The translations under genes and the position numbers were made by a program. DNA of 14,392 nucleotides. Origin: Mycobacterium sp. (GTDB lineage: Bacteria; Actinomycetota; Actinomycetes; Mycobacteriales; Mycobacteriaceae). Shown here one piece after another: positions 2-10,244 of the stretch (position 1 is the stretch's first letter; each line of letters opens with the position of its first letter). The stretch is taken from NCBI GenBank assembly GCA_018882545.1, contig VERS01000005.1:1-14392 (forward strand), in the 5' to 3' direction. The notes under the pieces are model-generated. The model was not told the DNA's origin. It did no database searches and saw nothing but the letters and a program-made list of their open reading frames with translations.

Positions 2-1102
2 CCCACCGTTGACAACTGGCCTAACTACTTCATCGAACGACCCCGTGCCGGCCAGACCGAGACACTTGGCGGTACGAGCCTGAACCGCCGCTACACCTTT
101 GACACCTTTATCATCGGTGCCTCCAACCGGTTTGCCCATGCCGCAGCCCTGGCGATCGCCGAGGCGCCGGCGCGGGCCTACAACCCACTCTTCATCTGGG
201 GTGAGTCCGGTTTGGGTAAGACCCATCTACTGCACGCAGCCGGCAACTATTCCCAGCGACTCTTCCCCGGCGTGCGGGTCAAGTACGTCTCCACGGAGGA
301 ATTCACCAACGACTTCATCAACTCGCTACGCGACGACCGCAGGGTCGCGTTCAAGCGCAGCTATCGCGACATCGACGTCTTGCTGGTCGACGACATCCAG
401 TTCATCGAGGGTAAAGAGGGCATCCAGGAGGAGTTCTTCCACACCTTCAACACCCTGCACAACGCCAACAAGCAGATTGTCATCTCCTCGGATCGCCCGC
501 CCAAACAGCTGGCCACTCTGGAAGACCGCCTGCGAACCCGATTCGAATGGGGCCTGATCACCGACGTCCAACCACCGGAGCTGGAGACCCGCATCGCGAT
601 CCTGCGAAAGAAAGCACAGATGGACGACCTGGCGGTACCCGATGACGTTTTGGAGCTCATCGCCAGCAGCATCGAACGCAACATCCGCGAACTCGAGGGT
701 GCCCTCATCCGGGTCACTGCCTTCGCCTCACTGAACAGGTCGCCCATCGACGTTGCACTTGCCGAAATCGTGCTCCGAGACCTGATCGCCGACGCGGGCA
801 CCGTCCAGATCAGTGCCGCGATGATCATGGCGGCCACCGCCGAATACTTCGACACCACCGTCGAGGAACTCCGCGGGCCCGGCAAGACCCGCGCTCTGGC
901 CCAGTCCCGGCAGATCGCCATGTATCTGTGCCGCGAGCTGACCGATCTCTCACTGCCCAAGATCGGCCAGGCCTTCGGTCGCGACCACACCACCGTGATG
1001 TACGCCCAGCGCAAGATTCGCGGCGAAATGGCCTACAAACACGAGGTGTTCGACCACGTCAAGGAATTGACCACCCGCATCCGCCAACGCTCCAAGCGCT
1101 GA
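2..1102 (+). CDS. dnaA: Chromosomal replication initiator DnaA (5' end missing)
   Basis: DnaA is the AAA+ ATPase that binds DnaA boxes in oriC, melts the origin and recruits the replicative helicase. The reading frame is open from the first complete codon (position 2). The 366 visible residues lack the N-terminal helicase-interaction domain and linker; mycobacterial DnaA is about 500 residues, so roughly 140 are outside the window. Numbering from position 2, the Walker A motif GESGLGKT is at 67-74, Walker B VLLVDD at 126-131, sensor 1 ISSD at 161-164, the box VII arginine-finger region [10 protein letters not shown] at 176-185, and sensor 2 [10 protein letters not shown] at 226-235. The DnaA signature DHTTVMYA of the DNA-binding helix-turn-helix domain is at 328-335. 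The gene ends with TGA directly before the oriC spacer, the standard actinobacterial arrangement. No defect is visible. The identification is certain. Confidence 0.98.
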
Positions 1103-1553: not shown

Positions 1554-2747
1554 ATGCACGTGGCGACCACGACGGTTGGCTCCGATCTGAAGTTCCGACT
1601 GATCCGGGAAGACTTCGCCGAGGCCGTCGCCTGGGTCGTCCGCAGCCTGCCGAGCCGTTCTCCGACGAACCCGGTTCTGGCCGGCATCCTGATCACCGGT
1701 TCAGATGAAGGCCTGACGATCGCCGCTTTCAACTTCGATGTTTCTGCTGAAGTCACGGTTCCGGCCGAGATCGCTTCGGCCGGAACGGTTTTGGTATCCG
1801 GCCGACTGTTGTCCGATATCACCCGCGCGCTGCCGGCCATGCCGGTCGACGTCAGCGTGGACGGCGCCAGGATGTTGCTGAACTGCGGTAGTGCGAGATT
1901 TTCCCTGCCGGCCATGCAGGTCGAGGACTATCCGACCTTGCCCGCCCTGCCGGAGGAGACCGGTGTGGTGGGAGCCGACCTGTTCACCGAAGCCGTCGGG
2001 CAGGTGGCAGTGGCCGCCGGGCGCGACGACACGTTGCCAATGCTTACCGGAATCCGGGTCGAAATCTCCGGCGACAAAGTGGTGCTGGCCGCGACCGACC
2101 GGTTTCGGCTCGCGGTCCGGGAACTGAGTTGGACGAGTGCTTCGCCAGGGTTGGACGCTGCTGTTCTGGTGCCGGCCAAGACTCTCGCGGAGGCCGCGAA
2201 ATCCTTGACGCCTGGCGGTGAACTCCACCTGTCCCTCGGTATCGGTGTGGCGGTCGGCGAGGAGCGCCTGCTGGGTATGAATTGCGCAGGCCGCCGCAGC
2301 ACCACCCGGCTGCTGGATTCGGAGTTCCCGAAATACCGTCAGCTTCTGCCCCCGGAACACACCGCCGTTGCGACGGTGTCGGTGACCGAGCTGGCTGAGG
2401 CGATCAAACGGGTCGCCTTGGTCGCTGACCGGGGCGCGCAAGTGCGCATGGAATTCTCCCCCGATGCCGTGCGCTTGCACGCCGGCGCCGACGGTCTCGG
2501 CACGGCCGAGGAGGATCTCCCGGTCGACTTTGCCGGTGAGCCGTTGACCATCGCCTTCAACCCGTCGTACCTGACCGATTGACTGACATCGCTGCACACC
2601 GATCGGGTGGTCTTCGGATTCACCGCGCCCAGCAAGCCGGCGGTGCTGCGGCCGGCACCGGCCGAGCCGCCCAGTGGACCGGGTCCCTTCCCGGCGATGG
2701 ACACCGAGTATGTCTACCTGTTGATGCCGGTCCGGCTACCGGGCTGA
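1554..2747 (+). CDS. dnaN: DNA polymerase III sliding clamp (beta), interrupted by an in-frame TGA
   Basis: DnaN forms the ring-shaped homodimeric clamp that tethers DNA polymerase III and repair factors to DNA. The ATG at 1554 follows GGAGTGAAGGG and gives the expected mycobacterial N-terminus. Clamp sequence is continuous through residue 342, with [30 protein letters not shown] and [12 protein letters not shown] near the domain boundaries and FNPSYLTD at the break. Codon 343 is TGA at 2580-2582, where mycobacterial DnaN has glycine. The same frame then continues for 54 codons of typical clamp C-terminus, ending [12 protein letters not shown], to the TGA at 2745-2747. That gives 397 codons including the TGA, close to the usual 400. 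The tail contributes to the client-binding groove and the end of domain III, so the 342-residue product should not work as a clamp. Wild-type origin and function are certain. Whether the stop is real, read through or a base error cannot be decided here. Confidence 0.93.
2580..2582 (+). other. Premature in-frame TGA in dnaN
   Basis: The codons around it read CTG ACC GAT TGA CTG ACA TCG. A single G-to-T change of GGA would create the stop and leave everything downstream in frame. The base after the stop is C, a context known to weaken UGA termination in several systems. No reassignment of UGA is likely, because most genes in the window end with TGA. Confidence 0.85.
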
Positions 2748-2769: not shown

Positions 2770-3663
2770 ATGGAACTGGGTCTGGTTGGTCTGGGCAAGA
2801 TGGGCTTCAACATGCGCGAGCGGCTGCGCAACGGTGGCCACGAGGTGACGGGCTACGACCCCCGCCCGGAGGTGTCCGATGTCCCCACCCTCGCGGCGCT
2901 GGCAGAGGCACTTCCGGCCCCCCGGGTTGTGTGGGTCATGGTCCCCTCAGGGCCGATCACCCACGACACCATCGCCTCGTTGGCCGAAGTCCTGAGTCCC
3001 GGTGATCTGGTAGTCGATGGCGGCAACTCGCGCTACACCGAAGACGGCCCGCATGCCGAGATGCTGGGTGAGCGTGGGATCGGTTTCGTCGATGCGGGTG
3101 TCTCGGGCGGCATCTGGGGGCTCACGGAGGGCTACGGTCTGATGGTCGGGGGCAGTGATGCCGACATCGCTCGGTTGATGCCGATCTTCGACGCACTGCG
3201 CCCCAGCGGGCCGGCTGCCGACGGGTTCGTCCATGCCGGCCCGGTCGGGGCGGGTCACTACGCCAAGATGGTGCACAACGGTATCGAGTACGGGCTGATG
3301 CATGCCTACGCCGAAGGCTATGAACTACTCAATGCCGAACCTCTGATCACCGACACCCAGGCGGTGATTCAGGCGTGGACCAACGGCACGGTGGTTCGGT
3401 CGTGGCTGCAACAACTGCTGGCGAAGGCGCTCAAGGAGGACCCGGCCCTGGCCGCCATCTCCGACTACACCGAAGATTCCGGTGAAGGCCGATGGACTGT
3501 CGAGGAGGCCATCAACCACCGCGTGCCCACGCCGGTTATCGCAGCCTCCCTCTTTGCGCGGTTCGCCTCGCGCCAGGAGCAGTCACCGACGATGAAGGCG
3601 GTCTCGGCTCTGCGCAACCAATTCGGAGGCCACGCGGTCAAACGGGTTCCGTTGTCCGGCTAG
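2770..3663 (+). CDS. gnd: 6-phosphogluconate dehydrogenase, decarboxylating, short type
   Basis: It oxidatively decarboxylates 6-phosphogluconate to ribulose 5-phosphate in the cytosolic pentose phosphate pathway. The 297-residue length fits the short class of the family, which lacks the duplicated C-terminal half of the 470-residue enzymes. The Rossmann motif GLGKMG is at 7-12, DGGNSRYTED at 83-92, VSGGIWG at 111-117, and the catalytic segment HYAKMVHNGIEYG at about 163-175 with Lys166 and Glu173. ATG 2770 is preferred because AAGGAGA ends 9 nt upstream. An in-frame GTG at 2761 would leave no spacing. The gene begins 22 bp after the normal dnaN end and stops 3 bp before recF, so it is probably in one operon with replication genes. 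Cofactor preference (NAD or NADP) is not decided. Insertion here is typical of fast-growing mycobacteria and absent in M. tuberculosis. Confidence 0.95.
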   Translation: MELGLVGLGKMGFNMRERLRNGGHEVTGYDPRPEVSDVPTLAALAEALPAPRVVWVMVPSGPITHDTIASLAEVLSPGDLVVDGGNSRYTEDGPHAEMLGERGIGFVDAGVSGGIWGLTEGYGLMVGGSDADIARLMPIFDALRPSGPAADGFVHAGPVGAGHYAKMVHNGIEYGLMHAYAEGYELLNAEPLITDTQAVIQAWTNGTVVRSWLQQLLAKALKEDPALAAISDYTEDSGEGRWTVEEAINHRVPTPVIAASLFARFASRQEQSPTMKAVSALRNQFGGHAVKRVPLSG

Positions 3664-3666
3664 CTG

Positions 3667-4809
3667 ATGCATGTCCGGCACCTGGCGCTACGCGACTTCC
3701 GATCCTGGGCTCATGTCGACCTCGAGTTGGCACCAGGGCGGACGGTATTCGTCGGCCCCAATGGCTTCGGCAAGACCAATCTCGTTGAGGCGCTGTGGTA
3801 TTGCGCCACCCTGGGTTCGCACCGGGTGGCTGCTGATGCACCCCTGATCAGATCCGGCGCCGACCGTGCGGTGATTTCGACCATCGTCGTCAACGATGGA
3901 CGCGAACTCGCGGTCGACATCGAGATCGCCGCGGGGCGGGCCAACAAGGCCAGGCTGAACCGCTCACCGCTGCGCAGCACCCGGGAGGTGCTCGGTGCGG
4001 TTCGGGCAGTGTTGTTCGCACCCGAGGACCTTGCGCTGGTCCGTGGCGAGCCGGGTGAGCGGCGTCGTTATCTGGACGAATTGGCCACCCTTCGGCGGCC
4101 CACGATCGCGGCGGTCCGCAGCGACTACGACAGGGTCCTTCGGCAACGCACGGCGCTGTTGAAGTCCGCGGCGGGGTCGCGACTGCGCTCCGATCCCGGG
4201 GTCCTGGAGACCCTCGAGGTGTGGGACGGGCACCTCGCGGAGCACGGTGCCCAACTGATGGCCGCCCGGATCGGTCTGGTCAATCAGCTCAGCCCAGAAG
4301 TCGAGAAGGCCTATCAGGTGCTGGCCCCGGCCTCCCGGCCGGCGACCATCGGCTATCGCGCCAGCATCGGCTACCACACCGAAGACGTCGAATGCCTGGA
4401 GGCCGCGCTGCTGGCCGGGTTGGCCAACCGGCGTGCTGCGGAGCTGGAGCGCGGGGTCTGTCTTGTCGGACCGCACCGGGACGATCTGGAGTTGCGGCTG
4501 GGTGACCAGCCGGCGAAAGGCTTTGCCAGCCATGGTGAATCGTGGTCTTTTGCCCTAGCGCTGCGATTAGCGTCCTACGAACTGCTGCGCGGCGAGGGGA
4601 GCGAACCAGTTCTGATCCTCGACGATGTCTTTGCCGAACTGGACACTTCTCGGCGACGCGCATTGGCGGGTGTGGCCGCGGCAGCCGAACAGGTGCTGGT
4701 GACCGCCGCGGTGGACGAGGACATCCCTGCGGACTGGGACGCCACCCGCATCGGCGTTGTGCTGCGCGAGGACGAGAGCGGGCGCGCGTCGGCGGTCGTG
4801 CTGCCGTGA
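3667..4809 (+). CDS. recF: DNA replication and repair protein RecF
   Basis: RecF is an SMC-like ATPase that recognises gapped DNA and helps RecO/RecR load RecA. The 380-residue length is normal for the family. The N-terminus has the typical beta strand pattern followed by Walker [10 protein letters not shown] at residues 30-38. The signature region [15 protein letters not shown] spans about 288-302, and Walker B VLILDD is at 315-320, followed by VFAELD. The ATG lies 3 nt after the gnd stop with no good ribosome-binding site of its own, which suggests translational coupling to gnd. The stop TGA overlaps the GTG of the next gene. No truncation or missing catalytic residue is seen. Confidence 0.97.
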
Positions 4810-5420
4810 GCCAGCACCGCAGCTCTGACGATCGGGCTCCTGACGATCGGGTCCCTGACGGTGGTGGCCCGGATGGTGGCGTCGAGCCGAGAACTTCCCC
4901 GGAGCGCCTCTCCGGTATGGATCTCGTCCGCCGCGCGCTGGAGGAAGCCCGCGCGGCCGCCCGCGATCAGGGCAAGGAGGTCGGCCGGGGTCGCCGGACG
5001 CCTGCGGCCCGCCGCACGACCCCGCCGCGCAGCCGCCGTCGGTGGTCGGGGCCGGGTCCTGACGCGCGCGACCCGCAACCGCTCGGCCGGGCGACCCGCG
5101 ACTTGGCCACGATGCGGGGCTGGGGTCCGCAGGTCGCAGAGGGAACGGTCTTCGCCCAATGGCCGGCGGTGGTCGGTGACGATATCGCCGGCCATGCCAC
5201 CCCGACCGCGTTGCGCGACGGTGTCCTGAGCATCACCGCCGAATCGACTGCGTGGGCCACCCAGTTAAGGATGGTGCAGGCCCAACTGTTGGCGAAGATC
5301 GCGGCCGCGGTCGGCGACGGTGTGGTCACAGCGCTGAAAATCACCGGGCCCGCCGCACCCTCGTGGCGCAAGGGCCCCCGGCACATCTCCGGCCGCGGCC
5401 CGCGCGACACCTATGGATGA
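4806..5420 (+). CDS. dciA: DUF721 protein, DciA-type helicase operator (Rv0004 homologue)
   Basis: DciA proteins load or operate the replicative helicase DnaB in bacteria that lack DnaC. The mycobacterial homologue Rv0004 has been reported as an essential replication factor. The C-terminal half (from about residue 90) carries the DUF721 core: [20 protein letters not shown], an [11 protein letters not shown] helix and a conserved [20 protein letters not shown] tail matching Rv0004. The N-terminus is low-complexity, acidic then Arg-rich, with a pentapeptide repeat. GTG 4806 overlaps the recF stop (GTGA), typical of translational coupling, and gives 204 residues against about 187 in M. tuberculosis. 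An internal ATG at 4920 ([11 protein letters not shown]) is an alternative, but it lies at a point where Rv0004 already has some 20 upstream residues. Family assignment is firm, and the exact start is moderately sure. Confidence 0.92.
4825..4866 (+). repeat. 15-bp tandem repeat in the dciA 5' coding region
   Basis: CTGACGATCGGG occurs at 4825-4836 and again exactly at 4840-4851, with a degraded third copy CTGACGGTGGCC at 4855-4866. The period is 15 bp. The encoded stretch reads [15 protein letters not shown], a pentapeptide repeat in the disordered N-terminus. Confidence 0.75.

Positions 5421-5581: not shown

Positions 5582-7710
<2,129 letters not shown>

Positions 7711-7739: not shown

Positions 7740-10244
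<2,505 letters not shown>

What the first reader, a model, noticed from the sequence alone, without database searches (positions are those of the whole stretch)
2580..2747. In-frame TGA in the essential clamp gene dnaN, with an intact tail beyond it
Seen: codon 343 is TGA, and the same frame continues for 54 codons that read as a normal clamp C-terminus (VVFGFT, then [12 protein letters not shown]) up to the usual stop 22 bp before gnd. Known: the clamp is essential and its C-terminal tail forms part of the client-binding groove and of domain III, so a 342-residue product should fail. The position is not invariant in the family (mycobacteria have Gly, E. coli has Val), so another inserted residue could be tolerated. 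Inference: this is a single-base error, a very recent nonsense change covered by a suppressor or second dnaN copy, or programmed readthrough of a UGA followed by C. The undegraded tail argues against an old pseudogene.
Basis: partly seen in the sequence, partly recalled or inferred. Interest (0 to 1): 0.8.

Follow-up and report, generated by a model that had tools for sequence, protein, structure and literature searches.

The report
Probable sequence error in clamp gene
A stop codon interrupts the essential sliding-clamp gene of an uncultured mycobacterium, but the sequence is a fragmented draft in which other genes are interrupted too, so this is most likely a wrong base in the draft and not biology.

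Summary
TGA at 2580-2582 is in frame in dnaN; the 342-codon 5' piece holds clamp domains I, II and two thirds of III, and the 54-codon tail is an ordinary clamp C-terminus ending 22 bases before gnd. The window is one whole contig of a fragmented mycobacterial draft (755 contigs, 84% complete), probably metagenome-assembled. In the relatives examined the codon is never a stop: 108 of 108 loci with both pieces and 119 of 119 proteins with both pieces have one and the same residue. RF2 is present, no tRNA-Sec reaches the cut-off, none of 33 tRNAs has anticodon UCA, TGA ends five of seven genes checked on the contig, and the bases after the TGA fold no better than shuffles. No second dnaN was found. 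Two other genes of this draft carry one in-frame TAG each (2 of 143 matches), against 0 of 150 listed in four relatives: suggestive, not significant. Most likely a consensus error; next a recent nonsense allele in part of the population. Readthrough, suppression or a hidden second clamp are not excluded but unsupported. Only reads can settle it.

The parts
1554..2579 (+). 5' piece of dnaN, 342 codons: clamp domains I and II, domain III to profile position 82 of 121
2580..2582 (+). In-frame TGA at codon 343; a sense codon in 108 of 108 relatives' loci that hold both pieces
2583..2744 (+). Undegraded 54-codon tail of dnaN (rest of domain III and C-terminus)
2745..2747 (+). Usual terminal TGA of dnaN, 22 bases before gnd
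2..1099 (+). dnaA, 5' end cut off by the contig end; 366 codons without internal stop, then TGA 1100-1102
   Evidence: the name rests on position and recall, no family search was run on it
2770..3660 (+). gnd-like 6-phosphogluconate dehydrogenase, no internal stop, ends in TAG
3667..4806 (+). recF, no internal stop, ends in TGA
5677..7707 (+). gyrB (start chosen by me), no internal stop, ends in TAG
7740..10241 (+). gyrA, no internal stop, ends in TGA

Best explanation
The TGA is a wrong base in the consensus of a fragmented draft assembly, from thinly covered or mixed-strain reads. The organism itself probably carries an intact dnaN with a sense codon at position 343, as the relatives examined do. 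Shown: the stop is in the sequence, is absent from the relatives examined, and the same draft has other interrupted genes. Inferred: that reads would not support it.
For: The genome is a draft of 3.28 Mb in 755 contigs, 84.43% complete, 2.67% contaminated; the window is one whole contig. DnaN is essential for mycobacterial viability (PMC10421592, passages), and the truncated product lacks the last third of domain III. No stop at this codon in 108 of 108 loci or 119 of 119 proteins that hold both pieces. The tail has no second lesion, although its synonymous sites differ at 39-60% from the 12 nearest loci. Of 143 matches to five families in this draft, 2 have an in-frame stop, both TAG, both in dehydrogenase-like genes; in one the two halves match adjoining parts of one Pfam profile. 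In four relatives 0 of 150 listed matches of that family have a stop.
Against: No reads or coverage could be seen. The excess of stops is not significant: 1 of 33 strong matches against 0 of 150 (Fisher P = 0.18), or 2 of 53 against 0 of 150 (P = 0.067). Only 150 of 236 control matches were listed, one family only, and two of the four control genomes look like near kin. Four of the five families showed no stop in this draft, 90 of 90 matches clean. The six other genes checked for internal stops on this contig have none. The two dehydrogenase stops could be real pseudogenes, and the one on C316 is a weak family match.
Confidence: 0.72

Rival explanations
1. A real, very recent nonsense allele carried by some cells (or by DNA of dead cells) of the sampled population, picked up as the consensus; a lethal or dying allele with no function.
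For: Tail undegraded, no further lesion; the fragmentation and completeness of the draft suggest a population sample (inference).
Against: A lethal allele should be too rare to become the consensus unless coverage is very thin (inference).
Confidence: 0.17
2. The organism lives with the UGA by readthrough or suppression: a tRNA inserts a residue at codon 343 often enough to make a full clamp.
For: The stop is UGA followed by C; termination efficiency depends on the base after the stop, and U there lowers readthrough in E. coli (start of the abstract of PMC5289835 in the listing). The tail stays in frame.
Against: No relative examined has the stop. RF2 has no stop inside. 33 tRNA genes found, none with anticodon UCA; tRNA-Trp has CCA. 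No tRNA-Sec over the cut-off. The 51, 81 and 101 bases at the stop fold no better than shuffles (z 1.46, 0.64, 0.34), and no Rfam match lies there. TGA ends 5 of 7 other genes checked on the contig. The two other interrupted genes carry TAG, which suppression of UGA would not cover. Not tested: changes in the body of tRNA-Trp, in the ribosome or in RF2, and tRNAs in the missing part of the genome.
Confidence: 0.05
3. The broken gene is covered by a second clamp gene elsewhere in the genome, a duplicate or one on a prophage.
For: Some mycobacteria have more than one clamp gene: divergent second clamps in G092, G237, G243 and G220, two equal full-length copies in G244, and in G055 a dnaN in three pieces besides a complete one. 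The second clamp of G237 has relatives at 51-52% identity in mycobacterial phages. About 16% of this genome is missing.
Against: One dnaN only was found in this draft. Whether a phage clamp can replace the host clamp was not tested.
Confidence: 0.04
4. The 342-residue product works as a clamp, alone or with a separately started tail peptide (first in-frame start codon of the tail is GTG at 2607).
For: The ninth codon after the stop is GTG.
Against: The cut falls inside domain III. [quoted passage not shown] that the end of the protein also forms part of the partner-binding pocket is recalled. No relative examined is split this way.
Confidence: 0.02

Closest known systems
dnaN of mycobacteria, beta sliding clamp (TIGR00663; a solved example is 5ah2)
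   Same: dnaN followed by gnd and recF, three clamp domains, conserved C-terminus; nearest loci 80-84% and nearest listed proteins 88-89% identical over the 5' piece
   Different: One in-frame TGA at codon 343, found in none of the relatives examined
Isolated nonsense errors or rare nonsense alleles in fragmented draft assemblies
   Same: A single stop, undegraded downstream frame, fragmented draft, other interrupted genes in the same draft
   Different: It hits an essential gene, which made it conspicuous; read support was not available
UGA recoding (selenocysteine insertion, stop readthrough, TGA-reading codes)
   Same: In-frame UGA with a conserved continuation
   Different: The UGA is not conserved, no tRNA-Sec over the cut-off, no UCA anticodon among 33 tRNAs, RF2 present, TGA ends most genes checked

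Membership tests
Beta sliding clamp, DnaN (TIGR00663) | Match of the protein to the family profile over its length | tested here: met
   Pieces searched apart: profile 1-327 (288 bits, over the cut-off of 137.65) and 329-367 (20 bits) of 367
Beta sliding clamp, DnaN (TIGR00663) | One uninterrupted reading frame | tested here: not met
   TGA at 2580-2582; a dnaN locus, but as held not an intact gene
Conserved (programmed) stop-codon readthrough | The in-frame stop is kept in relatives | tested here: not met
   0 of 108 loci and 0 of 119 proteins with both pieces
Conserved (programmed) stop-codon readthrough | Stimulating RNA structure after the stop | tested here: not met
   z-scores 1.46, 0.64 and 0.34; no Rfam match there. 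Not every readthrough case needs a fold (recalled)
Selenoprotein | tRNA-Sec in the genome | tested here: not met
   5 weak matches, none over the cut-off, each on an ordinary tRNA; genome 84% complete, so an unseen copy is possible. selA, selB and selD were not searched
TGA-reading genetic code | RF2 lost, a tRNA with anticodon UCA, TGA not used as stop | tested here: not met
   RF2 present without a stop inside; no UCA among 33 tRNAs; TGA ends 5 of 7 other genes checked on the contig
Sequence or assembly error | Reads do not support the base | not testable with these tools
   No reads or coverage available
Sequence or assembly error | Other unexpected stops in the same draft | tested here: inconclusive
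   2 of 143 matches in five families against 0 of 150 listed (of 236) in four relatives for one of these families; P 0.067 and 0.18

The most novel reading that the evidence does not exclude
The TGA is real and fixed, and this lineage makes an essential replication clamp only by reading through a UGA, tying the amount of clamp to translation accuracy.
Probability: 0.03. Interest if true: 0.75.

Novelty: not a real feature. Interest (0 to 1): 0.1.

Why it matters
If real, an essential gene would depend on translational readthrough, which would be striking. As it is most likely an error, its value is as a caution: an isolated stop in a conserved gene of a fragmented draft should first be checked against reads and against other genes of the same draft.

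Tried and rejected
Old pseudogene: rejected. The tail has no further lesion, and pN/pS against the 12 nearest loci (some of them the same genome twice) is 0.23-0.40 in the tail and 0.17-0.21 in the 5' piece. The tail is thus somewhat less constrained than the rest; in relatives its length varies (54-60 residues after the codon in 99 of the 100 loci measured, 8 in one that ends without a stop). This cannot date the stop.

Genetic-code change, selenocysteine and suppressor tRNA: looked for and not found. The five weak tRNA-Sec matches lie on ordinary tRNA genes.

Second dnaN in this draft: not found. The 5' piece has no close plasmid match in a mycobacterium among the six records listed of 320.

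Bin mixing at the tRNA Gln/Glu pairs of C410 and C320: only the tRNAs align, at 81-83%, so they are not strain duplicates. Of the other 59 contigs held, none aligns with the window contig.

Composition scan for interrupted genes in 60 of 755 contigs (390,648 bases; 17 loci under 3,000 bases, 43,632 bases, are N only). One search trained the codon scores and then crashed on N; finished. Three candidates: the C271 dehydrogenase; C664, where two genes adjoin; and C660, with no Pfam match on either side, not counted. The scan is insensitive: at its thresholds it listed neither the dnaN stop nor the C316 stop, and C271, C316 and C446 were fetched because they were already suspected.

One row (ppiA) was misframed by me and was redone.

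Papers: four searches. One search gave no paper; one search gave one, on Chlamydia psittaci, which I did not open. PMC5289835: abstract start in the listing and one passage. PMC10421592 and PMC11139829: passages only. None of the titles listed concerns this interruption.

Full report
What is there. The window is the whole of contig C446 (14,392 bases) of a draft genome of 3.28 Mb in 755 contigs, 84.43% complete and 2.67% contaminated. 297 genomes, the window's own included, were searched in its genus (unnamed); the named records nearest in dnaN are Mycobacterium, Mycolicibacterium and drafts labelled as metagenome-assembled. That the genus is Mycobacterium in the wide sense, and that this genome too is metagenome-assembled, are inferences from those names and from its fragmentation; its own record name was not shown. 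Because that genus includes a germ on the control lists, no codon was changed and the pieces of the gene were searched apart.

The observation. dnaN starts at ATG 1554, runs 342 codons, meets TGA at 2580-2582, and continues in the same frame for 54 codons to TGA 2745-2747, 22 bases before gnd. The 5' piece and the tail match adjoining parts of the clamp family profile (1-327 and 329-367 of 367) and of the same solved clamp (5-344 and 347-401 of 401).

Relatives. Of 109 loci (29 and 80, some the same genome fetched twice), 108 hold both pieces, separated by exactly one codon; it is a sense codon in 108 of 108 and for one and the same residue. One locus lacks the tail; this is probably L063, whose contig ends 28 bases after the match. 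Of 120 listed proteins (of 3,408 found) 119 hold both pieces with the same spacing and residue; one shorter protein lacks the tail. The nearest listed protein is 89% identical, so no other copy of this species was seen.

Is UGA read here? RF2 is present without a stop inside. 33 tRNA genes were found; 30 were typed and the other 3; none has anticodon UCA and the tRNA-Trp has CCA. No tRNA-Sec reached the cut-off. Of seven other genes on the contig, dnaA, recF, gyrA, ppiA and the gene ending at 5420 end in TGA, gnd and gyrB in TAG (six, the one ending at 5420); the six have no internal stop (dnaA is partial). Folding of three stretches at the stop gives z-scores of 1.46, 0.64 and 0.34, no better than shuffles. 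Rfam finds in the window only the two tRNAs and one sub-threshold match on the other strand of one of them. Nothing suggests programmed readthrough.

A second clamp? Only one dnaN was found in this draft. Of the 297 genomes, I looked again at 15 with several, weak or no matches. In most of them the extra matches are pieces at contig ends or short pieces; two have no match. But G244 has two full-length copies with equal scores, G055 has a dnaN in three pieces besides a complete one, and G092, G237, G243 and G220 have a second, divergent clamp covering most of the profile. Three of the four divergent ones were scanned and match clamp domains. The one of G237 has relatives at 51-52% identity in mycobacterial phages and prophages. 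So extra clamps exist in some mycobacteria, but there is no sign of one here; 16% of the genome is missing.

Other interrupted genes in the same draft. The genome search counts stops inside matches. In five families: AMP-binding 0 of 26, short-chain dehydrogenase 2 of 53, ABC transporter 0 of 32, enoyl-CoA hydratase 0 of 17, P450 0 of 15; together 2 of 143 matches, some of which are pieces of one gene. Both stops are TAG. On C271 the two halves match profile positions 2-64 and 73-191 of the dehydrogenase family. On C316 the stop lies inside an otherwise open dehydrogenase-like frame, a weak match (E 1.2e-5). In four relatives 0 of the 150 listed of 236 matches of this family have a stop; two of these genomes look like near kin, so they are not independent. 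Restricted to the range of strength that the control listing covers it is 1 of 33 against 0 of 150, P = 0.18; with all, 2 of 53 against 0 of 150, P = 0.067. This is suggestive only. About 2.8% of random substitutions in the genes of this contig would create a stop, so if the stops are errors each would stand for some 36 substitutions of any kind (inference).

Conclusion. An essential gene, interrupted once, in none of the relatives examined, with an undegraded tail, in a fragmented draft that has further isolated stops of another kind, is best explained by a wrong consensus base (0.72), next by a rare recent nonsense allele of the sampled population (0.17). Suppression or readthrough, a hidden second clamp and a working short clamp share the rest. 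Reads at the codon would decide.

Noticed in passing
L211 (G000:C271), 4428-4430, minus strand: A short-chain dehydrogenase gene of the same draft is interrupted by one in-frame TAG; both halves match the family.
   Followed up: yes
L212 (G000:C316), within 129-467, minus strand: A dehydrogenase-like gene of the same draft has one in-frame TAG in an otherwise open frame.
   Followed up: partly
L178, L182, L184, L185: Four other mycobacterial genomes carry a second, divergent clamp gene; three were scanned and match clamp domains. The one in L182 has relatives at 51-52% identity in Mycobacterium abscessus phages and prophages. Of the five neighbouring frames scanned, one matched a family of unknown function and four nothing.
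   Followed up: partly
L164 and L177 (G244:C1): Two full-length dnaN copies with equal scores on one contig, about 96 kb apart on opposite strands; a true duplication or an assembly repeat.
   Followed up: no
L180, L189, L190 (G055:C1:3356-4507): A dnaN in three pieces on one contig, besides a complete copy elsewhere in the same genome.
   Followed up: no
L071, L063: Records titled Bifidobacterium breve hold a dnaN 76% identical to the window's, so the record names look wrong.
   Followed up: no
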